64,000 nt of DNA from Pseudomonas brassicacearum (lineage in GTDB: Bacteria; Pseudomonadota; Gammaproteobacteria; Pseudomonadales; Pseudomonadaceae): positions 3,596,001 to 3,660,000 of the forward strand of contig NZ_CP045701.2 in NCBI RefSeq assembly GCF_009601685.2, written 5' to 3'. The notes under the pieces were generated by a model that was not told the DNA's origin, did no database searches, and was given only the letters and a program-made list of their open reading frames with translations. Numbering within the stretch: the first letter of the stretch is position 1; every line of letters starts with the position of its first letter. The translations under genes were made by a program, and so were the position numbers. Positions 46,381 through 62,261 of the stretch are shown here, one piece after another.

Positions 46381-46449
46381 CAAACACACCACATGCACTG
46401 CTTTTACAGCCTTATCGCGGGGACAAAGCGCTCGGCCGTACCTGGATGC

Positions 46450-47481
46450 TTACAGCGTCTCGGAAACTTTCTTGAACACCTCTTCAGGCACCCACCCCTT
46501 CCAATCAGCAGTATGGTTGCGCAAGTAATAACGCGCCGTTTGCTCGGGGGTTTCTTTGTTGGAGACCATTCGTGTTGCCAGCGTCCGGATGGTATCGGTA
46601 CCAACGAACATCGACTTCAAGAAAGGGATGACTGCCTGATGCTCTTTGGCGAATTTAGCTGACGTATATTTATTGAGGGCGATATCTGCGTATGCGCACG
46701 CTTGTCGACTCCCGACGCCCTCCTTGAACTGGGCAAGGCTATCGCTGATGGCGTCCCAGCAGGCTTCGCTGTAGGTAGGCTCCTCAAGGCGTGTAAGGGC
46801 CAGTTCACCCATCAGAGGGCTAGGGTCCCAGTAATAGGTCATGAAGGGCTGGCCCTTCTCGTAAGCTGAAATAATCGCGGCGTTGAGCGCTGACTCAGAC
46901 TTGAGTTCCACTGGCGTAAAAGAGCGATCCACCCCGTAAGTGGCCATTTTGATCAGGTTGATTTCCCGACACGCCCAACTACTGATGCAGTTTAACCAAG
47001 TGGCCTTGCCTGATCCCGATGCGCGCTTGAATACCTCAGCATACTTGGGAAGGTCTTCGACACGTTTCAGATCAGGGGTCGTAGGTTTGATTCCACGCTT
47101 GGCATCGCCCTTGATCATGTATGTGGGCACATAGAATGCCTGCGTGAGACGCTCATAAGTGGGACCGAAATCGAGGATGGCTTTTTTTGCCCTCTGATCC
47201 TCGACCCACTGAGGCATCAGCGACGTAAACATCTCCATATTGATGTCGATGTCGCCCGTTTCCATCGCTTTTTGCATTTGCGCGATATCAAGACTTACCG
47301 ACTCTACGTTCATGCCGTATCCATGCTTGAGGATGTACATGGCGATATGGTTGTCGATCTGGATATTTTCCCAGCCACCGTCGTAGAACCGGATCGAGCG
47401 AGCGTCAGATGACGCGAACGCCAAGTGAGCGGTCAGGCTTAGAACGAAGCACAGTGCAGTACGTACGAAAAATGAAGGCAT
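46450..47481 (-). CDS. Orphan glycine-betaine/choline-type ABC substrate-binding protein (OpuAC)
   Basis: The 343-residue periplasmic protein starts with a Sec signal (MPSFFVRTALCFVLSLTAHLAFA) and has the OpuAC fold (WENIQIDNHIAMYILKHGYG; MEMFTSLMPQWVEDQ; PFMTYYWDPSPLMGELALTRLEEP). Such receptors hold quaternary ammonium groups in an aromatic cage. It starts 10 bp after the polyketide synthase stop on the same strand, so it is in the biosynthetic operon. No permease or ATPase is present. The pairing suggests capture or recovery of a betaine-like product; ordinary betaine uptake is an alternative. Confidence 0.85.
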   Translation of the reverse strand: MPSFFVRTALCFVLSLTAHLAFASSDARSIRFYDGGWENIQIDNHIAMYILKHGYGMNVESVSLDIAQMQKAMETGDIDINMEMFTSLMPQWVEDQRAKKAILDFGPTYERLTQAFYVPTYMIKGDAKRGIKPTTPDLKRVEDLPKYAEVFKRASGSGKATWLNCISSWACREINLIKMATYGVDRSFTPVELKSESALNAAIISAYEKGQPFMTYYWDPSPLMGELALTRLEEPTYSEACWDAISDSLAQFKEGVGSRQACAYADIALNKYTSAKFAKEHQAVIPFLKSMFVGTDTIRTLATRMVSNKETPEQTARYYLRNHTADWKGWVPEEVFKKVSETL

Positions 47482-47491
47482 TTGAACTCTC

Positions 47492-50400
47492 CTATTGATG
47501 GACGGTTTCTGCTGAGTGGCTGTTTTTTGAATTGGAGGAAGTGGCGAGGGTTTCCACCACGATACTGGCTATCAGATCGCGCTGCCCTTCCACGAAGTAA
47601 TGGTCCCCCGCACAGAACACCGACTTGAACGCATGAGTCGTATGCTCACGCCAGCCGGTGATGTGAACGCCCGTGGCGTAAGGGTCGATACGCCCTCCAA
47701 TAGAGGTAATGGGGACCTCGAGACGGGGGCTGGTTTCGTACAGATAGGTATTATTTATTTCATAGTCAGCCTTGATGATGGGAAGCATCAAATCACGCAT
47801 TTCAGCGTCATCGAACAGTGCTTGATTGTTGGCAAAATTCATTTCCTTGAGCATCGCAATGAGCTCGCCGTCATCGCTCACCGCGGGCTCACGATCCGAC
47901 TCATAGTTGAACTGCAGTACATCGGAAGCGAATTGATGCTCGTTGTAAAAGTGCGGTGCCCGACTCCCTGCGAAAATCAAATGTGTCGGATGCAGGTTAT
48001 GTACATTGACCAGGCGTTGAGCCACCTCGAATGCCTGTACACCGCCCAAGCACAGACCAAAGAATGCGAACGGCCGGTCTAGATAGGGGATCAGATCAGG
48101 TGTCAGTTTTGTCACCAGTTCTTCCATGCGGGTGTAAGATTTTTCCCTCAGTCGTGCATTACGACCGGGCAGTTGCAGTAAGCAAAGCTCGATATGATTG
48201 GGCAACCGGCCCGCCCAATCCTTGAATACCGCGGGCCCGCCGCCTGCATAGGGAAAGCAAAACAAGCGAAGCGTTGCTTCTGGTCTAGGGATTGGGATAA
48301 CCACACAGTCCGATGTCTGCACTGCTTGCGGCTCAGGAGGGCTACTGCTTGCTCGCTCGGTTGGGTTGCATTGACGGACCGCCTCAAGCTGCTCAAGTAC
48401 GAAGTCGTTGATGTCGCTGAGGGTGGCACCGACGATAAGCCTGTCCAGGGGAAAGTTAATACCGAGCTTTTTTAGGCTGTTGCGAAATTCAACGGTCATC
48501 AACGAATCAAAGCCCATCATTGTGAGCGACTTGTCCACTGGACTTGCGTCGGCATCGAGACTGCCTGCAACCCGGGCCGCAACAGACATCAACTTGCTCC
48601 GGATGAATGCCTGTCTTTGCTCGTCATCCAGCAACAACACAGCCTCGAGAAAGGGAACGGTGTCGCGCTCCACGATTGCTTTGTCTGCTGAGTGTTGCGC
48701 ATCAATAAGCGATAGGTACGGCCAATCGCTGGATTGTAAATGCGCCTTATAGGGCGCCCAGTCGATCGGTGCTATACCGACGACACCTTGTGCACCCAGG
48801 TTGTCCCACAACTTTTGCAGGCCGACTTTCGCAGTAATGTAATTGATGCCTAACGTCGACAGACGCGTCTTGAACACCTTATCGACCCGACTGGCCATGC
48901 CCTCGGATGACCAAGGTCCCCACGCGATGCTTAAACCAGGTAATCCCGAACCAGCGCGGTTTTCCATGATGGCGTCCATCGCGCTATTGGCCGCAACATA
49001 GTTCGCCTGGCCCTTGAACCCCAGCGACGCGCTAATTGACGAGAAGCCTACGAAAAAGTCCAGCGACTGGGCGCGGGTGACATGGTCCAGCACCTGGGTG
49101 CCCTGCAGCTTCGGCGACAAGACATGCCTGAGAGAGGATGTGCTCAATTTCGAGAGGACAGCATCTTCAACAGTCCCCGCCAACTGCAGCACACCTCGTA
49201 GCGGCCATTGCAGAGCACCTATATACGACATCAGCGGCTCAACAGCCTCACGGGATGCGATATCCATAGTGAGATAGTCGATTTCCACGCCCTGGCGTCT
49301 AAACGTTTCCAGCACGGTCGAGCCAGTCGCTTCCAGTGATTTGCGTCCGACCACCGCCAAATGACGGGCCCCCTTTTCCACTAACCATGCAAGGACCTCG
49401 CGCCCTAGCCCACCCAGCCCACCGGCGACCAAATAGGTCGCATCCGGACTTAGCGCCATAGGCCTCGATTTAGCTGGCGACACCTCTATGAGTCGAGGCA
49501 CATGAACGCTGGAATGACGAATAGCGAATTGATCTTCCTGCCCGTTTGCAAGAATCAATTGCGATGCCAGAAGCAGATCGGCACCGACATCCTCGATGCT
49601 CGGTGGCAAGTCTATGAAACCGCCCCAAACAGCCGGCTCTTCCTGCGCGATCACTTTGGACAGCCCCCAAAGTGTGGCCTGCGAAACGTTGATCGATGAA
49701 GCAGCGGAACTCACGTTTACCGCTGCACGCGTTACGATCCAAAGCCTGGCAGCCTCTGGTCTGGAGCTGGTCGTCAGCGCTTGCAACGTGGCCAACACGC
49801 TATAGAGACCGGCATTCAGGGCACCAAGGTCTTCATTATCCAAGGGATGGTTGTCTGCGGACCGTTGCTCGGTCCCACCGAGGTGAACAACGCCTCTGAG
49901 CGGGTTGCGCGCTGAAATGGGCAGTGTTCGAAACACCTCGTGGATATCCGAGGGGGAGTCGGACCTGATGTGCCAGGTATTGGCGCTGATCCGGCAGCAA
50001 TCGGTCGCGAATATAGCGCGAACAAAGTGTTCGTCACGAATTGACAGGCCATTGCGGATACCCTGGACGAGTTCACTCGTCCCTCCAATGAACAGCCAGA
50101 CCCCGGTGACGTTCTGATCGTCATGGGTTACTTGAGCTTTGATGGGGTGCTGCACCCAGTCCACGGCCGTCATCCACTGAGGCTTTGCCGAAACGCGAGG
50201 GCCTATCCAATGGGGCACCCGCTGAAATGGGTAGCTTGGCGTGTCTACGCGCGTCGCCGTCGCCCCCTCTAAAAGGACCTCCCAGTCAAGTTCAATCCCG
50301 GCCTCGAACAAGCGCCCCGCGCTTTCCAGCATTTGTTCGCGATCAGCGACCTTGCTGTTCAGACTCGTTATCCAGGTGGTCTGGTCGGCGTCATCAGGTT

Positions 50401-52867
50401 GCAGGCATGCCGCTCCAATCGTCGACAACACCGCCTTTGGCCCGATCTCCAGAAAAGTCCGGCCACCTATTTCGAATGCGCTCTGGATGCAGTCCATGAA
50501 GCGTACCGGCTGGCGAACATGGTCAAGCCAATGCTCCGACGTCATTAGGTGCTCTTTGGTTATCTCCCCGCTGACGTTGCTGATCAGTGGATAGCGGGGT
50601 GCCGACATTCTGGTGCGCCCCAGAACGCTGGCAAAGGGCTGGAGTATCGGTTCCATCAGTTCGGAATGAAACGCATGGGAGACATTCAGGCGCGTGTACT
50701 TGGTACCCAGAGTGTCGAGCACTGAGTAGAGTCTGCTCAACTCGCTCAGGGCGCCGGAAACCACTACGTTGCCAGGGGCGTTGACGGCTGCGATGCTCAG
50801 ATCAATGGCATGCTGAGCCAGCAACTTGCGCACCTCGTCGTGGCTCAGCGAGACGGCGGACATTCCGCCATCCAAGGGGAGCGCCTGCATGAGGCGCCCA
50901 CGCTCGGCGACCAGGGTCATACCGTCCTCAAGACTGAACACACCCGCCACACAAGCCGCCGAAAATTCACCGAGACTGTGCCCAAGCAAAATATCGGGGA
51001 CAACGCCAACGTTCAGCCAAACCTGTGCAAGGGAATACTCCAACGCAAACAAGGCAGGTTGCGCATAGCGTGTCTGATCTATAAGCCCAGCTTCATCGCC
51101 TGGTGCAGGAAAAAGGATCGTGCGCAGGGATATTCCCATGCAGGTTTGCGCGATAGAATCGCAACGATCAATAGAGGTTCGAAACACCTCGTTATGCTGG
51201 TAGAGATCTTTGCCCATGTCTGGAAATTGAGCACCTTGCCCCGTGAACACGAAAACCAGCCCGGTCTCCTTGGCAGGGTCGACCCAGTGAATATCTTTGT
51301 CTTGCTGTTGGAGTTTTGTCAGAAGGGTTTCTGGCTGGCGGGCCGACACGGCGTATCGAAAAGGGAATTCTGCCCGTCCGGCACGGGCGCTGTAACAGAT
51401 ATCGCGCAGCGACGACACAGCCGGGCGTTCGAGCCATTCGCGGTACTGGTTGATGAGGTCCGCCAGGGCGTCACGATCCTTCGCGCAAAGAGCCAGAAGG
51501 TAGGGGCTGCCGGACTCAGTCAGCGAATGCGCCGATGTCAGGGGGGCCTCCTCAAGAACGACATGAGCATTCGTACCGCCCACCCCAAAGGAGCTGACGC
51601 CTGCGCGGCGGGGTGAATCGGTGGTCGGCCATGGGAGGGTTTTGGCGCTGATAAAGAACGGACTGCCGTCAAGATGGATGTCTTTATTGGCGCTCTTGAA
51701 GTGCAGCGTGGCGGGAATCGTCCGGTGCTTGAGCGCCAACACAGTCTTGATAAAACCCGCCACGCCAGCTGCTGCGATGAGATGACCGATGTTGGTTTTC
51801 ACCGAACCCAATGCACAGGTGTTTGCCTTGGCACCGTGCTGTGTAAACACGTCCATCAGCGCTTTGAATTCTATCGGATCGCCTAATGGGGTGCCTGTAC
51901 CATGAGTCTCTACAAAGTCGAGAGTCGCAGCGCTTACCTCCGCATTCTCAAGTGCCCGTTCAATGACTTGAGCTTGTCCTTGGGAGCTGGGGGCGGCAAA
52001 GCTGACTTTCTTGGAACCGTCGTTATTGATGGCCGATCCCTTAATTACAGCCTGAATGGGATCACCCGCTTCCAGTGCATCACTAAGCCTCTTGAGAGTG
52101 ACCAGTGCGGCGCCACTTCCAAAGACCGTGCCCTGCGCCGCGCAATCGAACGCCCGACAATGTCCATCTGGCGATTGGATCATCCCCTCTTGGTAGACAT
52201 AACCCTGGGCATGGGGCACCAGAACGGTCACGCCCCCGGCCAATGCAACATCGCACTCGCCCAGGAGTAAGCTTTGGCACGCCATATGAATCGAGACCAA
52301 CGAAGTCGAGCATGCCGTCTGGATGTTTAGACCGGGACCACGCAACCCCAATTTATAAGCAATCCGTGTCGACAGGTAATCCTTATCGTTACCCAACAAA
52401 TTCATGAAACCGGCGCTGCTGTCCAAAAAGCCGGTTTCGCAGACGTCCTCCTCCCCCATAACATTGGTGTGAAGGTAACCGTTGTTACCTGCGCCAGCGA
52501 ACACGCCAATGTTCAACGCCTCACGGTCCTTGCTAAATCCCGCAGCGTCCAACGCCTCCCAGGCACACTCAAGTAACAGTCGGTGCTGGGGGTCGGTAAT
52601 CGCTGCCTCGCGTGCTGACATTTCGAAAAAACCAGCATCGAACCGATCGACATTATTCAGACGCGCCGCCATGGCAACGTAGTCTTCCCGATTGGCCCGT
52701 TCAGCCGGAACACCCGCTTCCAGCAAGGAGCCCAGAGAAACAGGCTCAATGGACTCGTGACCCGCTGTTAAGTTTTCCCAGAATTGCTCGATGGAGTCGG
52801 CGCCCGGGAATCGGCAAGCCATGGAAATAACGGCAATCTCATTTCCGTGATATCTGATCTCGCTCAT
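47492..52867 (-). CDS. Type I PKS module KS-AT-KR-ACP with a cysteine thioesterase
   Basis: This 1791-residue enzyme has, in order: a KS with Cys186 (TACSTS) and His motifs HGTGTPLGDP and NIGHLIAAAG; an AT with Ser631 (GHSLGE) and HAFH, the malonyl-CoA motif; a KR with GGLGGLG near 1147 and Tyr1290 in QANYVAAN; an ACP with Ser1455 (GFDSL); and a C-terminal thioesterase. The TE nucleophile site is GLCLGG with Cys1606 instead of Ser, and Asp and His follow in GGRIDPYA and AGDHYF. No DH or ER is present. ATG 52867 has GGGAGA upstream. It should extend the acyl group of the NRPS partner by one C2 unit, reduce it to a beta-alcohol and release it. Confidence 0.93.
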   Translation of the reverse strand: MSEIRYHGNEIAVISMACRFPGADSIEQFWENLTAGHESIEPVSLGSLLEAGVPAERANREDYVAMAARLNNVDRFDAGFFEMSAREAAITDPQHRLLLECAWEALDAAGFSKDREALNIGVFAGAGNNGYLHTNVMGEEDVCETGFLDSSAGFMNLLGNDKDYLSTRIAYKLGLRGPGLNIQTACSTSLVSIHMACQSLLLGECDVALAGGVTVLVPHAQGYVYQEGMIQSPDGHCRAFDCAAQGTVFGSGAALVTLKRLSDALEAGDPIQAVIKGSAINNDGSKKVSFAAPSSQGQAQVIERALENAEVSAATLDFVETHGTGTPLGDPIEFKALMDVFTQHGAKANTCALGSVKTNIGHLIAAAGVAGFIKTVLALKHRTIPATLHFKSANKDIHLDGSPFFISAKTLPWPTTDSPRRAGVSSFGVGGTNAHVVLEEAPLTSAHSLTESGSPYLLALCAKDRDALADLINQYREWLERPAVSSLRDICYSARAGRAEFPFRYAVSARQPETLLTKLQQQDKDIHWVDPAKETGLVFVFTGQGAQFPDMGKDLYQHNEVFRTSIDRCDSIAQTCMGISLRTILFPAPGDEAGLIDQTRYAQPALFALEYSLAQVWLNVGVVPDILLGHSLGEFSAACVAGVFSLEDGMTLVAERGRLMQALPLDGGMSAVSLSHDEVRKLLAQHAIDLSIAAVNAPGNVVVSGALSELSRLYSVLDTLGTKYTRLNVSHAFHSELMEPILQPFASVLGRTRMSAPRYPLISNVSGEITKEHLMTSEHWLDHVRQPVRFMDCIQSAFEIGGRTFLEIGPKAVLSTIGAACLQPDDADQTTWITSLNSKVADREQMLESAGRLFEAGIELDWEVLLEGATATRVDTPSYPFQRVPHWIGPRVSAKPQWMTAVDWVQHPIKAQVTHDDQNVTGVWLFIGGTSELVQGIRNGLSIRDEHFVRAIFATDCCRISANTWHIRSDSPSDIHEVFRTLPISARNPLRGVVHLGGTEQRSADNHPLDNEDLGALNAGLYSVLATLQALTTSSRPEAARLWIVTRAAVNVSSAASSINVSQATLWGLSKVIAQEEPAVWGGFIDLPPSIEDVGADLLLASQLILANGQEDQFAIRHSSVHVPRLIEVSPAKSRPMALSPDATYLVAGGLGGLGREVLAWLVEKGARHLAVVGRKSLEATGSTVLETFRRQGVEIDYLTMDIASREAVEPLMSYIGALQWPLRGVLQLAGTVEDAVLSKLSTSSLRHVLSPKLQGTQVLDHVTRAQSLDFFVGFSSISASLGFKGQANYVAANSAMDAIMENRAGSGLPGLSIAWGPWSSEGMASRVDKVFKTRLSTLGINYITAKVGLQKLWDNLGAQGVVGIAPIDWAPYKAHLQSSDWPYLSLIDAQHSADKAIVERDTVPFLEAVLLLDDEQRQAFIRSKLMSVAARVAGSLDADASPVDKSLTMMGFDSLMTVEFRNSLKKLGINFPLDRLIVGATLSDINDFVLEQLEAVRQCNPTERASSSPPEPQAVQTSDCVVIPIPRPEATLRLFCFPYAGGGPAVFKDWAGRLPNHIELCLLQLPGRNARLREKSYTRMEELVTKLTPDLIPYLDRPFAFFGLCLGGVQAFEVAQRLVNVHNLHPTHLIFAGSRAPHFYNEHQFASDVLQFNYESDREPAVSDDGELIAMLKEMNFANNQALFDDAEMRDLMLPIIKADYEINNTYLYETSPRLEVPITSIGGRIDPYATGVHITGWREHTTHAFKSVFCAGDHYFVEGQRDLIASIVVETLATSSNSKNSHSAETVHQ

Positions 52868-52909
52868 CCTGTTCTCTCCCAAATTGATGGTGACTTAGCC
52901 GCGCGGCGC

Positions 52910-55900
52910 CTATAGCTGCTTCTGGCGTTTACGAGCCGCTGATTTAATGGCTGCGTTCCTGCGGCTCATACTGGAAGAAGGGCCCAACTTCGAGGGCGAG
53001 GCGTCATCCAACCCCAGCTTTCTGCCAATCAAACGCGTTTGAGCGTCGATGCTGTTTTCTTCAAAAAGCTCAGTGACTTGAAGGTTCAAACCGAAGGCAT
53101 CGTTCAACGTCCTGGTCAGGTTTACGATGAGCAGAGAGGAACCTCCCTGGGCAAAAAAACTTCGCATGGGATGTACCGAAGGGGTCATCAGGATGTCGGA
53201 CCATATTCGCGTCAGGCGCTGTTTTACCGACAACGGTTGATCGTCTGCTTGTGATGGCCTGGGTTGGACGTGAGGCGCTAGCCGCTCGAGCGCTGCGACA
53301 TCCAGCTTTCCGTTGAACGTGAGCGGGAAACGCTCCAGGAAAACAAAATGGGCGGGAATCATGTACGAGGGAACATGGGTTCGGAGGGAGTCTTTGAGTT
53401 TCTCAATGACATCTTGCCGGATAGCGAGGTCGTCGATTTCCCTGACAAAGGCTTGCTCAACCCGCGCGCTACCCACGGCAGGGCGAGGTTCGAAAGTGGG
53501 GTCCAAGCTGTTATGCGGCCCCACGAATACATCCATCGTTCCTGCGGGGAGACTATCGTTCCAGCGCACCCTGGCTTGACGATGGCGGCTGGAGGCCCAG
53601 CGGCGAAAGTATTCGGGGTCGTAAGCTTCGTCTGGGATGATTGAGGGAGCGTTTCGGGAAAGCTGCAGGTCCAGGCTGATTCTAGCGTTTGGAACACCTG
53701 TAAGCACAAACGCCGAAGGGGCGGATGCCAACCATTGACTCAGGTCTTGCTCGTATAGACGCTCATGTTGATACGAGTAGCGTGTAACCGGTTCTACGAT
53801 TGTTCGGTCATCCGTGTCGAGCCTTATGATGACGTCGTAACGATAACGAGTCATTTCATCGCTACCTTGCCCTGCTCGCAACTCGGTCTCTACGTTGACG
53901 ATTCGCTCAAGCGTGTAGGCCACTTGCTTGATTTGCAAAGGATCGAGCCACAACTCCCCTTCTCCGATCATGGGGAGTGCACGCTGCAACTTTTTGCGGG
54001 TACGACTCGCGGCAGCGGACAGGACGTGTTTCAGAGACTCGTAGGGAACATCTCCGATCACAATCACGCCACCGTCTTTGCACAACGTGCATGCTTTTTG
54101 AAGCACATCGACAAGGTAATCAATGCCTGGGAAGTACTGAATGACGGAGTTCAGAAGTACGACGTCGAAAGGTGCCTCACCCAGCGCATCAAGCTCATGA
54201 GCCGCCATTTTTACCAGCGCAAATGAGGCTGTATTGCTACCGGCCGCCTCCAGCCGTCGTCGCGCGGACTCAATCGCCGCTTCAGAAGCATCGCAGCCTA
54301 CATAACGCCGAACGCCGCTTTCCAGCAGCGCGGCTCCAGTCATCCCGATACCGCAGCCTACATCCAGCACTGAATGGCCTGAGAAAGCCAGAACACGAGA
54401 AGCTGTCGCCTGCACCCATTCACGCAGATCGCTGTCCGGGATCAACTCGCCGGAGAAACTTGAGGTGTAACCACTTTCGGCACTGGCGATCTCATTTTTC
54501 TGCGCCGACAGATAAGCCGCTTCCCACACGTCGAGCCAGACCCCGGCATCGGCATCGCGCTGCTGCCCCAACACTTTATTATCCAGCACGACATAGGCTG
54601 CCAGCCTGTGGTCATCATGAGCGTGTTCCACAAGCGTGACGACCGATTGGCTGACGAGGCCGGACTTATAAAGGGCGGCCTCGACCTCGCCCGGCTCGAT
54701 ACGGTAACCGTTCAACTTCAGTTGGCGGTCTTTACGTCCGATGAAAACCAGGGAGTTATCGGGCTGGCGTCGAACCCGATCGCCGGTGTAGTAAGCCACT
54801 GAAGTGCTGCTCTTTGCTTCAGTTGTTTGAAATTTCTCCAGCGTCAGATCGTCCCGATTGAAATAACCGGCACTGACCCCAGGCCCTTCAATCACCAGTT
54901 CGGACTCTAAAGGGTCATTTGACGGACACAATCGATAGTGAGTGCCAGGCAACGGCTGGCCTATGGGGACACTTGTGGCAGAACCGGTAAAGTCGTCGGC
55001 CTGCAATCTGTGACAGAAAGACCAAATCGTTGTTTCTGTCGGTCCATAAAGGTTCCATGCCGCCCGCGCCGACTGAAAGATCTTCTTACCCAGATCGACG
55101 GGTAATGTTTCACCGCCACACAGCGCTCCGACGGCGCAGGTGCGGGGCCACCCTGCTGCTATCAGCAGTCTCCAGGTGGCTGGGGTGGCTTGAAGCAGCG
55201 CACGGTCACATTGATCAAGTAATTTCGCGATCGCCTGTCCGTCCCTGGCCTGTTGCTCACTGGCCAAGTACAGCGTTCCACCTTGAGCCAAGGGCAGAAA
55301 AAATTCCAGGATGGAAATATCAAAGCCGTAGGTCGTCGTGGAAACCAGCGCGCCCCATGCCGAAAAATTGATCACCTCATTGATCGCAGATAAAAAATAG
55401 GCAAGATTTTGCCGACGGACCATCACGCCCTTGGGGAGACCCGTTGAGCCTGAAGTGAACAGCATATAGGCAAGCGAAACATCATCGATAACGGGGTCAA
55501 AGGGCAGCGTCGAATCGCTCCAATCGACGTCCTCGATATTTAAAAAAGCGTCCACCGGCCATCGTAAAAGATCAACAGATTGAGGTTTAATCACGGCATC
55601 GAGGTTGGCGAGCGAGGCTATAAGCTCATTACGCTGTAATGGCGAATCCGGGGGGAGCGGAACAAAGATTGCCCCTATCGACAGTACCGCAGTCAGCGCG
55701 ACGATCAGATCAGGCTCCCGGGGCAAGTAGATCCCAATCTTGCTCCCCAATCCAAAGCCTTCGCGGGCAAGGTGTTTGGCGAGTGCCTTTCTTCGGTTTG
55801 AAAGTTCAGCGTAGGTAATCGGCTGTCCTCGAGACATTATTGCTGTTTTCTCGGGGTGCTGATTCGCCCATGTATCGATTCTGGCAACAAGGTCCAGTGA

Positions 55901-55942
55901 AACGGGTGAGTAATTAACGGGGGGTATTGGCGGCTGCATCAT
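52910..55942 (-). CDS. Free-standing NRPS loading module: adenylation (Gly code), N-methyltransferase, PCP
   Basis: The 1010-residue protein has no condensation domain. The A domain shows LFTSGSTGLPKGVMV, FDIS with Asp208, YGPTETT and Lys879 (NGKLD). The binding-pocket code reads D-I-L-Q-L-G-L-I-W plus K, a known glycine code. Between A8 and A9 lies an N-methyltransferase (LDVGCGIG near 527, NSVIQYFP near 597, MTRYRYDVII near 696). The PCP Ser936 is in GGSSLL. ATG 55942 has AAGGAG 8 bases upstream. It should load and N-methylate glycine, then pass it to the PKS encoded 42 bp downstream. Confidence 0.92.
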   Translation of the reverse strand: MMQPPIPPVNYSPVSLDLVARIDTWANQHPEKTAIMSRGQPITYAELSNRRKALAKHLAREGFGLGSKIGIYLPREPDLIVALTAVLSIGAIFVPLPPDSPLQRNELIASLANLDAVIKPQSVDLLRWPVDAFLNIEDVDWSDSTLPFDPVIDDVSLAYMLFTSGSTGLPKGVMVRRQNLAYFLSAINEVINFSAWGALVSTTTYGFDISILEFFLPLAQGGTLYLASEQQARDGQAIAKLLDQCDRALLQATPATWRLLIAAGWPRTCAVGALCGGETLPVDLGKKIFQSARAAWNLYGPTETTIWSFCHRLQADDFTGSATSVPIGQPLPGTHYRLCPSNDPLESELVIEGPGVSAGYFNRDDLTLEKFQTTEAKSSTSVAYYTGDRVRRQPDNSLVFIGRKDRQLKLNGYRIEPGEVEAALYKSGLVSQSVVTLVEHAHDDHRLAAYVVLDNKVLGQQRDADAGVWLDVWEAAYLSAQKNEIASAESGYTSSFSGELIPDSDLREWVQATASRVLAFSGHSVLDVGCGIGMTGAALLESGVRRYVGCDASEAAIESARRRLEAAGSNTASFALVKMAAHELDALGEAPFDVVLLNSVIQYFPGIDYLVDVLQKACTLCKDGGVIVIGDVPYESLKHVLSAAASRTRKKLQRALPMIGEGELWLDPLQIKQVAYTLERIVNVETELRAGQGSDEMTRYRYDVIIRLDTDDRTIVEPVTRYSYQHERLYEQDLSQWLASAPSAFVLTGVPNARISLDLQLSRNAPSIIPDEAYDPEYFRRWASSRHRQARVRWNDSLPAGTMDVFVGPHNSLDPTFEPRPAVGSARVEQAFVREIDDLAIRQDVIEKLKDSLRTHVPSYMIPAHFVFLERFPLTFNGKLDVAALERLAPHVQPRPSQADDQPLSVKQRLTRIWSDILMTPSVHPMRSFFAQGGSSLLIVNLTRTLNDAFGLNLQVTELFEENSIDAQTRLIGRKLGLDDASPSKLGPSSSMSRRNAAIKSAARKRQKQL

Positions 55943-56082
55943 TCCAAGAACTCCTTCTACCGTGATCGGTACATAGAATCTAAATGGGTTATGCATGCAG
56001 TACTAAATGACTACCTGATGCATTCAGCACAACAATATTAGTCATTCCTTAAAGCGATGAGCGGAAAATGGGTAAATTTCGA

Positions 56083-56943
56083 TTATTTGTAACTTAGTAA
56101 AAATACGCCAACAAGAACAGTACCTATCCCAACCTTCTGCACCACCGTCGTTATCTCTCTGTAGATCACGATAGCTAGCAACACCGTTACACCGGAGTAT
56201 ACCGAACTGATAGGCGTCACTAACGATAGATCACCCACCTTGGAGGCGAATATATAAAACACCCAGCCTGCATTGACTAACAAAGAGTGCGCAAAGAAAA
56301 TCCACCCGCGACGCTGAGTTACGTCGCCTTTTTCCAGCTTGCCGTTCCTGATCAGCGCCAATGAAGTAAAAAGAACAGCCTGAGTTAATGCCGAATAAAA
56401 GAAAGCATTCGTGACATCAAGTGTTTTTGCGGAAAAACCAAGAATAAAAAAGGCCACACCAAAGCCGGCCATGGCCAAGATAGCTTGGAGGAACCCTTGC
56501 GAGCCGCCACGCAGTGAGCGGAAGATATTGCCGGATGTCATGACAATACCAATAAAAATAATAGATACGGCAGTCCAGGCAGCCGGGGCCAACCTTTCTT
56601 GTAGAAAAATGATGGAGAAAAGGATAGTGACCAAGCTATAGGTAGAAGCAATCGGAGAAACCAAGGACAAGTTTCCGACCTCACACCCTCGCATGTAGAA
56701 ATAATACCCTGATACGTAGGCGGCAGAGCTGCAGGTAATAATCAACACGGCACTGGTGTCGAACCTGAGCTGGTGTGACATGATCAAATATGCCCCCAAG
56801 AGGGAGGCCACAGCAAAGGTAAATATATTGCGAACCAGCATTGTTTTTGCGGTACCTAACTGGCGAATCATCAGACTTTGAATAAAGTCTGAAATCCCCC
56901 AGCACAACATAACCATCAGTCCGCCAAAAACTCCGCCATCCAT
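56083..56943 (-). CDS. EamA/DMT-family transporter
   Basis: The 286-residue protein has ten hydrophobic segments in two EamA repeats (start GGLMVMLCWGISDFIQSL; paired VSPIASTYSLVTILFSIIFLQERL and VTPISSVYSGVTVLLAIVIYREI). DMT members export or import small metabolites. It lies between the ArsR-type gene (21 bp) and the NRPS gene (140 bp) on the same strand, so product export is likely. Base composition is visibly AT-rich. Confidence 0.85.
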   Translation of the reverse strand: MDGGVFGGLMVMLCWGISDFIQSLMIRQLGTAKTMLVRNIFTFAVASLLGAYLIMSHQLRFDTSAVLIITCSSAAYVSGYYFYMRGCEVGNLSLVSPIASTYSLVTILFSIIFLQERLAPAAWTAVSIIFIGIVMTSGNIFRSLRGGSQGFLQAILAMAGFGVAFFILGFSAKTLDVTNAFFYSALTQAVLFTSLALIRNGKLEKGDVTQRRGWIFFAHSLLVNAGWVFYIFASKVGDLSLVTPISSVYSGVTVLLAIVIYREITTVVQKVGIGTVLVGVFLLSYK

Positions 56944-56964
56944 ACCGGAAAAACTCCATCTCCA

Positions 56965-57279
56965 TTAGACTTGCTGCGTCAGCCAAGCCTTGTATTCATC
57001 GATTGCAGTTTCATCTCTTGAATAAAATGCCCATTTGCCAATTTTGTTCACACGCAAAAAGCCTGCTTGTTTCAATAGATCCAAGTGCCTGCTCACAGTT
57101 GGCTGGCTCATGCCGAGTTTTTCAGTAATCAACGTTACGCACACGCCGATCAACGCTGGATCACCGGTAACTTGATGAGAGAAGTGCGCACGAGGCTCCT
57201 TAAGCCATTGAAGGATTAAGATTCGAGGTTCACCCGCAAACGCTTTGGATTGCTCTATGTATTTATCGTGTGGCTTCAT
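56965..57279 (-). CDS. ArsR-family transcriptional regulator
   Basis: This 104-residue winged-helix protein has the ArsR recognition region KLGMSQPTVSRHLDLLKQAGFLRVNKIGKWAFYSRD. It has only one Cys (GVCVTL), so a thiol-metal switch of the classic type is unlikely and the signal may be organic. It is the first gene before the EamA-NRPS-PKS-OpuAC run and probably regulates it through the dyad at 57325-57337. Confidence 0.88.
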   Translation of the reverse strand: MKPHDKYIEQSKAFAGEPRILILQWLKEPRAHFSHQVTGDPALIGVCVTLITEKLGMSQPTVSRHLDLLKQAGFLRVNKIGKWAFYSRDETAIDEYKAWLTQQV

Positions 57280-57324
57280 CCTATCCTCATATAGCTAAAT
57301 GTCAATGCGTTTTTTTAGATTGAT

Positions 57325-57610: not shown

Positions 57611-57832
57611 CTAGGTCTTCTCTTTAGGCTCCGCCAGCGCCTCCAGCACCAAGGGGTGCAGGACAGCCTCTGGATGCATCTGTTGCCACCCCTGCAATTG
57701 CTGGCGCATGCCCGGCGTCCAGAAGCTCTTGATGTGCTGGCGCACGCCATTGACCGCCAATGTGTGATCCGGCTCGCTGGCGAAATACTGAGCGATCTGG
57801 TTGGCCATCTTGATCAAGCTATCAGAGCTCAT
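57611..57832 (-). CDS. fdsD: Formate dehydrogenase delta subunit
   Basis: The 73-residue protein (LIKMANQIAQYFASEPDHTLAVNGVRQHIKSFW, then MRQQLQG) matches FdsD, the small subunit of soluble NAD-dependent formate dehydrogenase. It overlaps the alpha-subunit stop by 4 bases (57829-57832) and ends the operon. Confidence 0.9.
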   Translation of the reverse strand: MSSDSLIKMANQIAQYFASEPDHTLAVNGVRQHIKSFWTPGMRQQLQGWQQMHPEAVLHPLVLEALAEPKEKT

Positions 57833-60705
57833 CGACGCACCTCGGCCTTCTCGGCATGGCGACGTTCCCTGAGCAAGCGGCTTTGTTCATCACTGAACGC
57901 CTGGTAGCGCTTCTGCCATTCCGAAGGCTGGCTGACCCGCACGATCTCGACCGCCGTCACCTTGTATTCCGGGCAGTTGGTGGCCCAGTCGGAGTTGTCG
58001 GTGGTGATCACGTTGGCGCCCGATTCAGGGAAGTGGAACGTGGTGTAGACCACGCCCGGTGCCACCCGCTCGGTCACCTTCGCACGCAGCACTGTTTGCC
58101 CGGCACGACTGCCGATACCCACCCAGTCTTCGTCGACGATCCCGCGGTTCTCGGCGTCGGTTGGGTGAATCTCCAACCGGTCCTCCTCGTGCCAGGCCAC
58201 GTTGTCGGTACGCCGGGTCTGGGCACCGACGTTGTACTGGCTGAGGATACGTCCGGTGGTCAGCAACAGTGGATAGCGGCTGTTGACCTTCTCATCGGTG
58301 GGCACGTAGCCGGTGAGCATGAAGCGCCCTTTGCCGCGGACGAACTGATCGATGTGCATGGTCGGCGTGCCGTCCGGTGCGGCATCGTTGCAAGGCCATT
58401 GCAGGCTGCCGTGACGATCCAGTTCGGCGTAGCTGACGCGGGTGAAAGTCGGCGTCAGGCGGGCGATTTCATCCATGATTTGCGAAGGATGGTTGTAGTG
58501 CATCTTGTAGCCCAAGGCGTCGGCCAGGGCGATGGTGGCTTCCCAATCGGCCTTGCCGGCCAGTGGGTCCATCACCTTTCGAACGCGGGAGATGCGGCGT
58601 TCGGCGTTGGTGAAGGTGCCGTCCTTCTCAAGGAACGAGCTGCCCGGCAGGAACACGTGGGCGAACTTGGCCGTCTCGTTGAGGAAGATGTCCTGGACGA
58701 TCACACATTCCAACGCGGACAACGCGGCCGTCACATGCTGGGTGTTGGGGTCGCTCTGGGCGATGTCCTCGCCTTGGCAGTAAAGCGCCTTGAAGGTGCC
58801 GTCCAGGGCCGCCTCGAACATGTTCGGAATGCGCAGGCCCGGGTCGGGTTGCAGAGTGACGTTCCAGGCCTGTTCGAACTGGGCGCGTACGGTTTCGTTG
58901 GAAATGTGCCGATAACCCGGCAGCTCGTGGGGGAACGAGCCCATGTCGCAGGAGCCCTGGACGTTGTTCTGTCCACGCAGCGGGTTCACGCCGACACCTT
59001 CGCGACCGATGTTGCCGGTGGCCATGGCCAGGTTGGCGATGCCCATCACCGAGGTGCTGCCTTGGCTGTGCTCGGTGACGCCAAGGCCGTAGTAGATGGC
59101 CGCGTTGCCGCCGGTGGCGTAGAGCCGTGCAGCGGCGCGGATCTGCTCGGCAGGCACGCCACACACCGGGCCCAGGACCTCAGGGGAGTTTTCCGGCTGG
59201 CTGACGAAATCGCGCCAGCGAGCGAAGTCCGCCGCCTCGCAGCGTGCCTCGACAAAAGGCTGGTCAATCAAGCCTTCGGTGGCAATCACATGGCCCAAGG
59301 CATTGAGCATTGCCACGTTGGTGCCCGGACGCAGTTGCAAGTGCAGCTCGGCACGGGCGTGAGGCGAATCCACCAGGTCAATGCGCCGTGGGTCGATGAC
59401 AATCAGCCGTGCGCCCTGACGCAGGCGGCGCTTGAGCTGTGAGCCGAACACCGGGTGCGCGTCAGTCGGGTTGGCGCCCATCACCAGGATGACGTCGGCC
59501 TTCATCACCGAGTCGAAATTCTGGGTGCCGGCGGACTCGCCCAAGGTCTGCTTGAGGCCGTAACCGGTAGGCGAATGGCAGACGCGGGCACAGGTGTCGA
59601 CGTTGTTGTTGCCGAACGCGGTGCGCACCAGTTTTTGCACCAGGTAGGTTTCTTCGTTGGTGCAGCGGCTGGAGGTGATGCCCCCGATGGAGTCGCGCCC
59701 GTACTTGAGCTGGATCCGGCGCAATTCGCTGGCGGCATAGGTGACCGCCTCGTCCCAACTGACTTCCTGCCACGGGTCGTTGATGTGCTTGCGAATCATC
59801 GGCTTGGTGATGCGGTCCGGGTGCGTGGCGTAGCCCCAGGCGAAGCGCCCCTTGACACAGGAGTGACCGTGGTTGGCCTGGCCGTTCTTGTCCGGGACCA
59901 TGCGCACCAGTTGTTCGCCTTTCATCTCGGCGCGGAACGAGCAACCCACGCCGCAGTAGGCGCAAGTGGTGATGACGCTGCGCTCCGGCTGGCCGATCTC
60001 CACGACGCTCTTGTCGATCAGGGTCGCCGTCGGGCACGCCTGCACGCAGGCGCCGCAGGACACGCATTCGGAGTCGAGGAAGTTGTCACCGCCGGCTGCC
60101 GCCACTCGAGAGTCAAAACCACGTCCGGTGATCGTCAGGGCGAAGGTGCCCTGGATTTCCTCGCAGGCACGCACGCAGCGGTTGCAGACGATGCACTTGC
60201 TCGGGTCGTACTCGAAATAGGGGTTGGAAACGTCCTTGGCTTCATCCAGGTGATTGGCGCCGTCGTAGCCGTAGCGCACTTCGCGCAGGCCCACCTGCCC
60301 CGCCACCGTCTGCAATTCGCAGTTGCCGTTGGCTGCGCACGTCAGGCAGTCCAGCGGGTGGTCGGAGATGTACAGCTCCATCACGTTGCGTCTCAAATCG
60401 GCGAGTTTGGAGGTCTGGGTGCGCACCACCATGCCCTCGGTCACCGGTGTGGTGCAGGAGGCCGGATAACCGCGCATGCCGTCGATCTCCACCAGGCACA
60501 TGCGGCAGGAGCCGAACGCCTCCAGGCTGTCGGTGGCGCAGAGTTTGGGAATGGTGGTGCCGAGCAAGGCCGCGGCACGCATGACCGAGGTGCCGGAGGC
60601 GACGCTGATTTCGCGCCCGTCGATGGTCAGGCTGACCTGCACGTCGCTTTCGCGCGCCGGGGTGCCCAGGTCGATATCACTGCTGGGGTCGAAGATAGTG
60701 ATCAT
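57829..60705 (-). CDS. fdsA: Formate dehydrogenase alpha subunit (Mo/W, NAD-linked)
   Basis: The 958-residue catalytic subunit oxidises formate to CO2. The N-terminus holds a 2Fe-2S ferredoxin part (FGSCRMCLVEIDG) and 4Fe-4S clusters (CIVCNRCVRACEEIQG; CVSCGACVQACPT). Then comes YCGVGCSF at the pterin domain. The active site is RVCHSPTGYGL, with Cys rather than selenocysteine and the conserved His. ATG 60705 overlaps the fdsB stop (ATGA, 60702-60705); the longer upstream frame is not used because it runs into fdsB. Confidence 0.96.
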   Translation of the reverse strand: MITIFDPSSDIDLGTPARESDVQVSLTIDGREISVASGTSVMRAAALLGTTIPKLCATDSLEAFGSCRMCLVEIDGMRGYPASCTTPVTEGMVVRTQTSKLADLRRNVMELYISDHPLDCLTCAANGNCELQTVAGQVGLREVRYGYDGANHLDEAKDVSNPYFEYDPSKCIVCNRCVRACEEIQGTFALTITGRGFDSRVAAAGGDNFLDSECVSCGACVQACPTATLIDKSVVEIGQPERSVITTCAYCGVGCSFRAEMKGEQLVRMVPDKNGQANHGHSCVKGRFAWGYATHPDRITKPMIRKHINDPWQEVSWDEAVTYAASELRRIQLKYGRDSIGGITSSRCTNEETYLVQKLVRTAFGNNNVDTCARVCHSPTGYGLKQTLGESAGTQNFDSVMKADVILVMGANPTDAHPVFGSQLKRRLRQGARLIVIDPRRIDLVDSPHARAELHLQLRPGTNVAMLNALGHVIATEGLIDQPFVEARCEAADFARWRDFVSQPENSPEVLGPVCGVPAEQIRAAARLYATGGNAAIYYGLGVTEHSQGSTSVMGIANLAMATGNIGREGVGVNPLRGQNNVQGSCDMGSFPHELPGYRHISNETVRAQFEQAWNVTLQPDPGLRIPNMFEAALDGTFKALYCQGEDIAQSDPNTQHVTAALSALECVIVQDIFLNETAKFAHVFLPGSSFLEKDGTFTNAERRISRVRKVMDPLAGKADWEATIALADALGYKMHYNHPSQIMDEIARLTPTFTRVSYAELDRHGSLQWPCNDAAPDGTPTMHIDQFVRGKGRFMLTGYVPTDEKVNSRYPLLLTTGRILSQYNVGAQTRRTDNVAWHEEDRLEIHPTDAENRGIVDEDWVGIGSRAGQTVLRAKVTERVAPGVVYTTFHFPESGANVITTDNSDWATNCPEYKVTAVEIVRVSQPSEWQKRYQAFSDEQSRLLRERRHAEKAEVRR

Positions 60706-62261
60706 TGGTCGGCCTCCGTGGTCGCCAGACCGAAGTCGGCGGGGAAATGCTTGAGGGCGCTGGCGACAGGGTAGGACGTCATCCCACCGAGGGCACAGAG
60801 CGAACCGTATTGCAGGGTATCGCACAGATCCTGCAACAGCAGGGCCTGTTCCTGACGAGCAGCGGTTTCGGTGCTGGCGATCAAGCGATCCACCACTTCC
60901 ACCCCACGGGTGGAGCCGATCCGGCACGGCGTGCACTTGCCACAGGATTCCTCGGCGCAGAACTGCAAGGCGAAGCGGGCCATCTGGGCCATGTCCAGGC
61001 TGTCGTCGGCAACCACCACGCCACCGTGGCCAAGCATCGCGCCCATGGCGGCGAACGCTTCGTAGTCCAGCGGTGTATCGAATTGCGAAGGCGGCACCCA
61101 AGCCCCCAACGGCCCGCCCACTTGCGCGGCCTTCAGGGGACGACCGCTGGCGGTACCGCCGCCGTAGCCTTCCACCAGTTCACGCAGGCTCAGGCCGAAG
61201 GCGCGCTCCACCAAGCCACCCTGACGGACGTTGCCGGCCAGTTGGAACGGCATCGTGCCCAGGGAACGGCCCATGCCGAAGTCGCGATAGAACTGCGCGC
61301 CCTTCTCAAGGATGATCGGCACCGAGGCCAGGGTCACCACGTTGTGCACCAGCGTCGGCAGCCCGAACAGGCCTTGAATCGCCGGCAGTGGCGGTTTGGC
61401 GCGAACCGTGCCGCGCTTGCCCTCGAGGGATTCCAGCAGTGCGGTTTCTTCGCCACAGATATAGGCGCCGGCGCCGACACGAACCTCAATGTCGAAGGCG
61501 CAGCCGCTAGCGCTCACGTTCGCCCCCAGATAGCCGGCGTCGCGAGCGATGCGCAGCGCTTCGTTCAGCGTACTGATGGCGGCCGGGTATTCCGAACGCA
61601 CGTAGATGTAGCCCATCGTCGCGCCTACGGCGATGCTGGCAATGATCATGCCTTCAATGAGCAGGAAAGGGTCGCCCTCCATCAGCATGCGGTCGGCGAA
61701 GGTGCCGGAGTCGCCTTCATCGGCGTTACACACCACATACTTCTGTGCACCCACGGCATCGCGCACCGTGCGCCACTTGATGCCCGCCGGGAATGCCGCA
61801 CCGCCCCGACCGCGCAGGCCGGAATCCAGCACGCTGGCGACCACATCTGCGCCATCCATCTGGATGGACCGGGCCAGGCCCAGGAATCCGCCCCGGGCAC
61901 GGTAGTCGTCCAGGGACAGCGGTTGCGTGATGCCGGCGCGCGCGAACAGCAGGCGCTGCTGGCTCTTGAGATAGGGAATCTCCTCCACCGGCCCCAGTGC
62001 CAGCGGATGGCTGCCAGGATCGCCTGCCAGCGCATCCAGCAGGCTCGGCACGTCGGCCGGTGTGACGGGGCCAAACCCCAGACGGACGCCGGCGCTTTCG
62101 AGCTCTACCAGCGGTTCCAACCAATAGAGGCCACGGGAACTGGTGCGCAACACCGTCAACGGCAGTTGTCGACGCTCAGCCTCATGGGCCAACGCATCGG
62201 CCACCTTGTCCGCGCCCACGGCACGGGCCACAGAATCGCGGGGGATACAGAGCGTCAGCAT
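60702..62261 (-). CDS. fdsB: Formate dehydrogenase beta subunit (NADH/FMN)
   Basis: This 519-residue NuoF-like protein has the FMN/NAD region (GLRGRGGAAFPAGIKW, NADEGDSGTFADR) and the cluster site ESCGKCTPCRIG. Its N-terminal extension contains a thioredoxin-like part, typical of FdsB. It passes electrons from FdsA and FdsG to NAD. ATG 62261 overlaps the end of fdsG by 7 bases. Confidence 0.95.
   Translation of the reverse strand: MLTLCIPRDSVARAVGADKVADALAHEAERRQLPLTVLRTSSRGLYWLEPLVELESAGVRLGFGPVTPADVPSLLDALAGDPGSHPLALGPVEEIPYLKSQQRLLFARAGITQPLSLDDYRARGGFLGLARSIQMDGADVVASVLDSGLRGRGGAAFPAGIKWRTVRDAVGAQKYVVCNADEGDSGTFADRMLMEGDPFLLIEGMIIASIAVGATMGYIYVRSEYPAAISTLNEALRIARDAGYLGANVSASGCAFDIEVRVGAGAYICGEETALLESLEGKRGTVRAKPPLPAIQGLFGLPTLVHNVVTLASVPIILEKGAQFYRDFGMGRSLGTMPFQLAGNVRQGGLVERAFGLSLRELVEGYGGGTASGRPLKAAQVGGPLGAWVPPSQFDTPLDYEAFAAMGAMLGHGGVVVADDSLDMAQMARFALQFCAEESCGKCTPCRIGSTRGVEVVDRLIASTETAARQEQALLLQDLCDTLQYGSLCALGGMTSYPVASALKHFPADFGLATTEADQ

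What the first reader, a model, noticed from the sequence alone, without database searches (positions are those of the whole stretch)
46450..57279. Compact five-gene NRPS-PKS island predicted to make a betaine-like or carnitine-like zwitterion
Seen: ArsR regulator, EamA transporter, A-NMT-PCP, KS-AT-KR-ACP-TE and OpuAC receptor, all on one strand in AT-richer DNA. Known: this domain order gives one aminoacyl unit plus one C2 unit with a beta-hydroxyl. Inference: glycine, N-methylated, extended and reduced gives 4-(methylamino)-3-hydroxybutanoate; three methylations would give carnitine; ring closure would give 4-hydroxy-1-methylpyrrolidin-2-one. The quaternary-ammonium-type receptor 10 bp behind the PKS supports a charged small product. 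From memory, BurA of Burkholderia, a bimodular NRPS-PKS making the zwitterion gonyol, is the closest conceptual precedent.
Basis: partly seen in the sequence, partly recalled or inferred. Interest (0 to 1): 0.88.

Follow-up and report, generated by a model that had tools for sequence, protein, structure and literature searches.

The report
Mobile cluster for a zwitterionic hydroxy-amino acid
Five neighbouring bacterial genes, whose core is also found reshuffled in nitrogen-fixing rhizobia, look like a complete kit to build, export and take back up a very small charged molecule made from glycine and a two-carbon unit, a predicted relative of carnitine.

Summary
In detail: five minus-strand genes at the stated coordinates encode ArsR, EamA, A-NMT-PCP, KS-AT-KR-ACP-TE and an OpuAC periplasmic receptor, in DNA of 54% GC against 61-62% around it. 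The host is a Pseudomonas; 3 of 298 Pseudomonas species sampled, own genome included, carry it. The core trio (NRPS, PKS, receptor) recurs at 40-47% identity, in another order, in Rhizobium and Agrobacterium vitis, in R. sullae 4.6 kb from nodC. Exporter and regulator there are unrelated or far diverged members of the same families. The adenylation code (DILTLGLIWK, or DILM(L/I)GLIWK in the rhizobial type) fits glycine and keeps the Asp that BurA lacks: free glycine is loaded, then N-methylated. A related line without the methyltransferase lacks the receptor in the two plasmid stretches searched. Best reading: glycine, N-methylation, one malonyl extension and ketoreduction, released as open 4-(methylamino)-3-hydroxybutanoate (0.5). 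The degree of methylation is open. The receptor does not settle it: the same aromatic pocket occurs in a receptor encoded beside histidine ammonia-lyase. A catalytic cysteine in the thioesterase hints at ring-forming release but is common in its clade. Carnitine itself is possible, unproven and disfavoured by the ketoreductase type.

The parts
56965..57279 (-). ArsR-family winged-helix regulator, 104 aa
   Evidence: Pfam HTH_5, NCBIfam HTH_metalloreg 54.7 bits against cut-off 55; tblastn hit in L013 and L016, none in L014, L015, L017
56083..56943 (-). EamA (DMT) family transporter, 286 aa; inferred exporter
   Evidence: PF00892 E 2e-25; 88-90% identical in the Pseudomonas copies; no significant similarity to the EamA proteins of three rhizobial/A. 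vitis clusters
52910..55996 (-). NRPS loading/modification protein A-NMT-PCP, 1028 aa as ORF (probable start MMQ at 55942)
54572..55876 (-). adenylation domain core, code DILTLGLIWK (glycine-type)
   Evidence: PF00501; code positions chosen by recalled A-domain motif anchors, read across rows by alignment; no direct alignment to GrsA was made
53447..54547 (-). SAM N-methyltransferase inserted before the A-domain C-terminal subdomain
   Evidence: PF08242 etc.; best solved relative 5wmm, named 'NRPS', E 1.8e-26, next hit 2.8e-5
53030..53221 (-). peptidyl carrier domain with conserved GGSS
   Evidence: PF00550; S953/S954 invariant in 14 of 14
47492..52882 (-). type I PKS module KS-AT-KR-ACP-TE, 1796 aa (ATG at 52867)
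51548..52843 (-). ketosynthase, Cys191-His327-His367
50294..51256 (-). acyltransferase, GHSLGE and HAFH (malonyl-type, recalled) in Pseudomonas; VASH/FASH in the rhizobial/A. vitis rows
48908..49441 (-). ketoreductase, K1258-S1282-Y1295-N1299; VED at the LDD position, no Trp at the A-type position
   Evidence: motif meaning recalled
48410..48586 (-). acyl carrier domain, GFDS1460L
47564..48268 (-). thioesterase, Cys1611-Asp1733-His1761, RifR-like
46450..47481 (-). OpuAC periplasmic substrate-binding protein with a signal-like N-terminus; pathway-specific clade; no permease or ATPase among the five genes
   Evidence: PF04069 E 7e-39; signal sequence judged by eye

Best explanation
A self-contained, horizontally moving pathway for one very small zwitterionic gamma-amino-beta-hydroxy acid. 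The A domain loads glycine on the PCP. The built-in methyltransferase N-methylates the tethered glycine at least once. The KS extends it with one malonyl unit, the KR reduces the beta-ketone, and the TE releases the chain, giving 4-(methylamino)-3-hydroxybutanoate or its dimethyl form. EamA exports it, and the OpuAC receptor binds it in the periplasm for re-uptake through a host permease of the choline/betaine type; ArsR sets expression where present. Shown: gene content, domain order, conserved catalytic residues, co-inheritance of NRPS, PKS and receptor. Inferred: glycine from the code, malonyl from the AT motif, number of methyls, hydrolysis rather than ring closure, direction of EamA, ligand of the receptor, partner permease.
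For: Glycine-type code with the alpha-amino-binding Asp in the 10 rows read and the Asp in 14 of 14; a survey gives L/M299, L/M322, I/V330, W331, K517 for glycine domains and DILQLGMIWK for four of them (PMC12283262, passages). The NMT resembles the one NRPS structure far above all other methyltransferases listed. KS, AT, KR, ACP and TE catalytic residues conserved in 8 of 8. NRPS, PKS and SBP sit together, reordered, in R. etli 8C-3, R. sullae, R. gallicum and A. vitis at 40-47% identity. 12 of 16 full-length receptors of the clade lie on a contig with an NRPS or PKS homologue: 9 by equal contig length, plus the window's own, the SJZ074 contig and the R. gallicum plasmid; 4 were not placed. 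The related line without NMT has no hit to receptor, EamA, ArsR or NMT at E 1e-3 in the two plasmid stretches searched (33 and 26 kb). The host has two permeases above the choline-permease cut-off; that CaiX of P. aeruginosa works with the CbcWV core is in PMC5806209 (passages).
Against: No product is known. The rhizobial/A. vitis AT has VASH/FASH instead of HAFH (3 of 3), so extender and product may differ there. The TE nucleophile is Cys, as in the ring-forming ObiF and SulM thioesterases. Free secondary gamma-amines close to lactams easily (chemistry, recalled). The receptor pocket is shared by most other homologues and by a receptor beside histidine ammonia-lyase, so it only argues for an amino-acid-like or betaine-like ligand. 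EamA could import rather than export. The exporter and regulator are not recognisably orthologous between the two groups, and ArsR is missing from 3 of 5 named Pseudomonas loci.
Confidence: 0.5

Rival explanations
1. The methyltransferase works three times and the product is carnitine or its mirror image: a de novo assembly-line route to carnitine, used as osmolyte, plant-facing signal or nutrient store.
For: The glycine amine stays free on the line, since neither protein has a condensation domain. The receptor belongs to the betaine/DMSP/choline-binding family and its solved relatives by profile are DmpX, ProX and ChoX, with aromatic residues at the five cage positions in 17 of 17 (four positions aligned to DmpX, W169 placed through ProX W140 only).
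Against: Trimethylation by an NRPS-embedded NMT has no precedent known to me (recalled). Pseudomonas KRs have VED at the LDD position and no Trp (5 of 5 rows), which points to the B type; by the priority rules that would give the D form, not L-carnitine (recalled rule, not tested). The same cage is present in most other homologues and in a receptor beside histidine ammonia-lyase.
Confidence: 0.13
2. Release by ring closure: 4-hydroxy-1-methylpyrrolidin-2-one (gamma-lactam), or a beta-lactone formed by the Cys thioesterase.
For: TE has Cys1611 with the Asp in the RifR position, the combination described for beta-lactone-forming ObiF (PMC6668435, passages) and beta-lactam-forming SulM (PMC11298585, passages); a 5-membered lactam forms readily from a gamma-amino thioester (recalled).
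Against: Control: of 161 domain matches in 121 proteins scanned (query and the 120 listed hits), 101 have the same Cys-Asp-His triad, 41 Ser-Asp-His, 19 other or incomplete, so Cys is a clade trait. A neutral lactam does not fit an OpuAC receptor.
Confidence: 0.2
3. The product is a precursor for another pathway encoded elsewhere in the genome, and the cluster is not complete.
For: The genome holds many other NRPS genes, and a gamma-amino-beta-hydroxy acid is a plausible building block (statine-like).
Against: The core recurs without further NRPS or PKS genes in the annotated stretches of two Rhizobium plasmids, and it carries its own terminal TE, transporter and receptor.
Confidence: 0.1
4. 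The receptor is not for the product but for a precursor or host compound (for example glycine betaine or an amino acid), and only its regulation links it to the cluster. This can hold together with any of the products above.
For: OpuAC receptors of this family bind different ligands (PMC10030565, passages); the nearest paralogues found in the genome are an orphan (30.5%) and the receptor beside histidine ammonia-lyase (26.5%).
Against: The receptor clade travels with the NRPS-PKS across two classes of bacteria, and stands between PKS and NRPS in rhizobia.
Confidence: 0.15

Closest known systems
BurA (Burkholderia thailandensis), gonyol synthase of the malleicyprol pathway (PMC7496086; parts 1 and 2 of 3 of the text read)
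   Same: NRPS-PKS line: A and T, one malonyl extension, KR; product a small zwitterionic beta-hydroxy acid.
   Different: BurA-A lacks the Asp at 235 and activates preformed DMSP; the S-methylation is done before loading by a separate SET-domain enzyme. Here the Asp is present, the code is glycine-type, the NMT is embedded, and NRPS and PKS are separate proteins. No receptor is mentioned for bur in the parts read.
A-PCP plus KS-AT-KR-ACP-TE pair on Mesorhizobium japonicum pMLa and Rhizobium sp. BT03 plasmid
   Same: PKS alignable over its whole length, 42% identical to the window's PKS and 39% to the rhizobial copies; A-PCP gene directly before the PKS.
   Different: No NMT, code DVQLHAQVVK (proline-like, recalled), GntR regulator annotated nearby; no receptor, EamA or ArsR hit in the stretches searched.
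ATRR, glycine-betaine-activating A domain (as described in PMC7496086)
   Same: Handles a glycine-derived zwitterion.
   Different: Has the D235 loop replaced according to that paper; D235 is present here.
DmpX / ProX / ChoX / HutX periplasmic receptors
   Same: PF04069 family and aromatic pocket.
   Different: Usually encoded with permease and ATPase (recalled; dmpXWV in PMC10030565, passages); this one is an orphan in a biosynthetic cluster.
ObiF1 and SulM thioesterases
   Same: Cys nucleophile and RifR-position Asp.
   Different: Ends a PKS module here, and Cys is common in its PKS-TE relatives.

Membership tests
BurA-type gonyol synthase | A domain lacking D235, zwitterion-specific | tested here: not met
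   D226 of P0001 (=235 by motif anchor) invariant in 14 of 14; contrast in PMC7496086
BurA-type gonyol synthase | one PKS extension with KR after an NRPS loading unit | tested here: met
   domain order
Glycine-activating A domain | specificity code DIL-x-(L)G-(L/M)-(I/V)-WK | tested here: met
   DILTLGLIWK in the 5 Pseudomonas-type rows read (of 9 in A1), DILMLGLIWK in 4 and DILMIGLIWK in 1 of the 5 rhizobial-type rows (3 named, 2 unnamed); PMC12283262. Positions mapped by recalled motifs; activity not tested
NRPS N-methyltransferase (A8-A9 insertion) | SAM motif and insertion before the A-domain C-terminal part, relative of known A-NMT proteins | tested here: met
   that 5wmm is an A-NMT protein is recalled
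Malonyl-specific AT | GHSxG with HAFH | tested here: met
   5 of 5 Pseudomonas rows; 0 of 3 rhizobial/A. vitis rows, which have VASH or FASH. Motif meaning recalled
OpuAC quaternary-ammonium receptor | aromatic cage (DmpX W35, W84, W152, W202 with Y200) | tested here: met
   17 of 17 aromatic; W152 position placed through ProX W140. Also kept by most of 100 other homologues and by a receptor beside histidine ammonia-lyase, so not diagnostic of the ligand
OpuAC quaternary-ammonium receptor | binds a quaternary ammonium compound | not testable with these tools
   needs ITC or thermal shift
Beta-lactone/beta-lactam-forming TE (ObiF, SulM) | Cys nucleophile and RifR-like Asp position | tested here: inconclusive
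   met in 8 of 8 but also in 101 of 161 matches among relatives, cluster members included
Carnitine biosynthesis | trimethylation of the amine | not testable with these tools
   no sequence marker known to me
Carnitine biosynthesis | L configuration at C3 | tested here: inconclusive
   VED, no Trp in Pseudomonas suggests the opposite configuration; NEN/TES in rhizobial/A. vitis rows ambiguous; rules recalled

The most novel reading that the evidence does not exclude
Plant-associated Pseudomonas and rhizobia share a mobile assembly-line cassette that makes carnitine or a nor-carnitine de novo from glycine and malonate, secretes it, and recovers it with a dedicated receptor: a private-goods zwitterion system serving both pathogens and nodule symbionts.
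Probability: 0.15. Interest if true: 0.85.

Novelty: new variant of a known kind. Interest (0 to 1): 0.6.

Why it matters
It would be a very small complete NRPS-PKS pathway, with a prediction concrete enough to test by mass (134.08, 148.10 or 162.11). The pairing of an assembly line with a transporter and a pathway-specific receptor of the betaine/amino-acid type, with unrelated or far diverged transporters in two bacterial classes, suggests a molecule that is released and taken back. Its presence in Pseudomonas related to plant pathogens and beside nod genes makes a role at the plant surface worth testing. The listings of my paper searches showed no report of this cluster or product; they cover only open-licence PMC papers, several listings were capped (for example 20 of 39, 20 of 675, 12 of 30), and I read only a few of those papers, in part.

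Tried and rejected
Beta-lactone from the Cys thioesterase: attractive at first, weakened by the clade control. Quaternary ligand from the receptor cage: weakened by the controls. I first took P0003 E110 as equivalent to DmpX E113; the profile alignment places E113 at a gap, so that claim is dropped although one search counts it. In one search the rows L103, L106 and L107 were picked in a wrong or doubtful frame and are not used; the control rests on L100. Agrobacterium vitis necrosis/biocontrol NRPS-PKS genes (lead recalled): only a reference-list entry was readable, identity with the L019 cluster not shown. Empty-site search: homologues of the flanking genes are scattered in relatives (11 of 57 and 32 of 57 genomes with a hit, own included), so no empty site and no insertion mechanism was found. 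Structure prediction of the receptor was submitted and had not finished at the last try, so no structure result is used and no fold search was run. The glycine code DILQLGLIWK is recalled; it was in no paper searched. The R. gallicum copy lies on a 2.47 Mb replicon typed non-mobilizable, against mobility there. L018 (PKS split in two frames in that draft) was left out of the PKS alignment. L022 has frame breaks and no PKS hit and was used only as a receptor fragment.
Full report
Observation. Cluster GC is 54.0% against 61.0% and 62.5% on either side. The window is Pseudomonas (names of the best orthologues; named loci), contig position 3596001-3660000 of a 6.58 Mb genome. In 3 of 3 Pseudomonas copies translated, a stop codon lies a few residues upstream of MMQ, so the NRPS probably starts at 55942.

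Distribution. In the protein search 11 listed proteins match the NRPS over 95-98% of its length at 77-93% and 5 over 96-97% at 40-41% (Mesorhizobium, Rhizobium, Agrobacterium vitis and two unnamed); most of the next listed rows match only the A domain, with a few multidomain proteins at 32-33% (120 rows shown of 7738). In sampled genomes, 3 of 298 Pseudomonas species (own genome included) pass E 1e-150, and 1 of 398 genomes of the phylum sample, the own genome, passes 1e-120 with the Rhizobium query. It is rare and patchy.

Mobility. blastn between the window and the other Pseudomonas copies runs through the cluster and stops at its ends (46449-46451; 56943-56958 or 57306-57307), with only short pieces matching elsewhere. 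P. corrugata, P. mediterranea and strain SJZ074 share flanks with each other; P. cichorii and P. mediterranea share only the cluster. So there are several chromosomal sites. I found no empty site. In rhizobia the cluster is on plasmids that MOB-suite calls conjugative (R. etli 8C-3; R. sullae) and on a 2.47 Mb R. gallicum replicon called non-mobilizable. In R. sullae nodC, nodB and nodA are annotated downstream (NRPS end 18027, nodC 22645 in L094).

A core and two sets of accessories. Order in Pseudomonas: (ArsR) EamA, NRPS, PKS, SBP. In R. etli 8C-3, R. sullae and A. vitis: ArsR divergent, EamA, PKS, SBP, NRPS. A PPTase lies on the other strand between EamA and PKS in R. sullae and A. vitis (Pfam), and an ORF with a near-identical N-terminus is there in R. 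etli. NRPS, PKS and SBP align at 40-47%. The EamA proteins show no significant similarity between the two groups and the ArsR proteins align only over 58 residues. Either these two genes diverged past recognition or an EamA transporter and an ArsR regulator were added twice.

Chemistry read from sequence. The A-domain code is DILTLGLIWK in the 5 Pseudomonas-type rows read and DILMLGLIWK (4) or DILMIGLIWK (1) in 5 rhizobial-type rows. The positions were set by recalled motif anchors, not by alignment to GrsA. A survey of A domains gives L/M299, L/M322, I/V330, W331 and K517 for glycine and prints DILQLGMIWK for four glycine domains (PMC12283262, passages). The Asp at 235 is kept in 14 of 14; BurA-A and the betaine-activating ATRR-A lack it (PMC7496086, parts 1 and 2 read). 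So the line is predicted to load an alpha-amino acid and methylate it in place. For the methyltransferase the best solved relative is the NRPS 5wmm at 1.8e-26, the next at 2.8e-5. KS, AT, KR, ACP and TE catalytic residues are intact in 8 of 8 PKSs. The AT has HAFH (malonyl-type, recalled) in 5 of 5 Pseudomonas rows but VASH or FASH in the three rhizobial/A. vitis rows, a sign that the rhizobial product may differ. The KR has VED where B-type reductases have LDD and no Trp at the A-type position in Pseudomonas; the other rows have NEN or TES. From recalled rules this favours D configuration in Pseudomonas, spatially opposite to L-carnitine.

Release. The TE triad is Cys1611-Asp1733-His1761. Its nearest solved relatives are thioesterases 3qmw/3qmv (RedJ, recalled), 6vap and RifR; ObiF1 appears at 2.7e-9. 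ObiF (beta-lactone) and SulM (beta-lactam) combine Cys with Asp at the RifR position (passages). As a control I scanned 121 proteins (query and the 120 listed hits): of 161 domain matches 101 have C-D-H, 41 S-D-H, 19 other or incomplete; cluster members are among the 101. Cys is therefore a trait of this TE clade and not a sign of ring closure by itself.

Receptor. The SBP belongs to a clade of 16 full-length database clusters at 44-100% identity (plus one fragment, P0151, at 49% over 57%); the next listed are at 37-40%. 12 of the 16 can be placed on a contig with an NRPS or PKS homologue: 9 by equal contig length, plus the window itself, the SJZ074 contig and the R. gallicum plasmid. The other 4 were not placed. 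Its solved relatives by profile are DmpX (5e-19), ProX (2.7e-8) and ChoX (6.7e-5). Aromatic residues occupy the five cage positions in 17 of 17 (query and 16 clusters; DmpX residues from PMC10030565, passages; W169 placed through ProX W140). But the cage is not specific: of 100 other homologues 92 keep W37, 96 have W or Y at 85, 99 keep W169, 96 Y216 and 97 W218, and the SBP encoded with permease, ATPase and histidine ammonia-lyase in this genome keeps all five. So the receptor argues for an amino-acid-like or betaine-like zwitterion and against a neutral lactam, not for a quaternary nitrogen. No permease is among the five genes; the genome has two permeases above the choline-permease cut-off, and CaiX using the CbcWV core in P. 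aeruginosa is described in PMC5806209 (passages).

A natural contrast. The same PKS architecture (42% to the window's PKS) occurs with an A-PCP protein without NMT on M. japonicum pMLa and Rhizobium sp. BT03, with code DVQLHAQVVK (proline-like, recalled). I fetched 2 of the 4 plasmids that matched above 80%. tblastn with the window's receptor, EamA, ArsR and NMT, and with the rhizobial receptor and NMT, gave no hit at E 1e-3 in either stretch, while the R. gallicum stretch used as positive control gave receptor, NMT, NRPS and PKS. In these samples the receptor goes with the N-methylating variant.

Verdict. A real, apparently complete and mobile small-molecule cassette, for which the search listings I saw held no description. 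Most likely product: open 4-(methylamino)-3-hydroxybutanoate or its dimethyl form (0.5), then a ring form (0.2), then carnitine (0.13).

Noticed in passing
L117:12098-19343 and L118:10087-17325: Related mini-line A-PCP plus KS-AT-KR-ACP-TE on Mesorhizobium japonicum pMLa and Rhizobium sp. BT03, code proline-like (recalled); BT03 copy near KamA and aminotransferase genes. Product unknown.
   Followed up: partly
window 52910-53000 (C-terminus of the NRPS) and orthologues: Basic, Arg-rich C-terminal tail on the NRPS in the 14 rows printed and at the end of both related A-PCP proteins; possible docking tail for the PKS.
   Followed up: no
L094:18027-24610: In R. sullae pWSM1592_2 the cluster lies 4.6 kb from nodC/nodB.
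   Followed up: no
G000:C1:3896892-3897749 (L102, L119): Orphan OpuAC receptor, nearest paralogue found (30.5%) of the cluster receptor in the same genome, between cation/proton antiporter genes and a chemoreceptor-like gene.
   Followed up: partly
window 57829-61101 (-): 1090-aa molybdopterin/iron-sulfur oxidoreductase (formate dehydrogenase-like) next to the cluster; homologues lie elsewhere in relatives.
   Followed up: partly
   Followed up: partly
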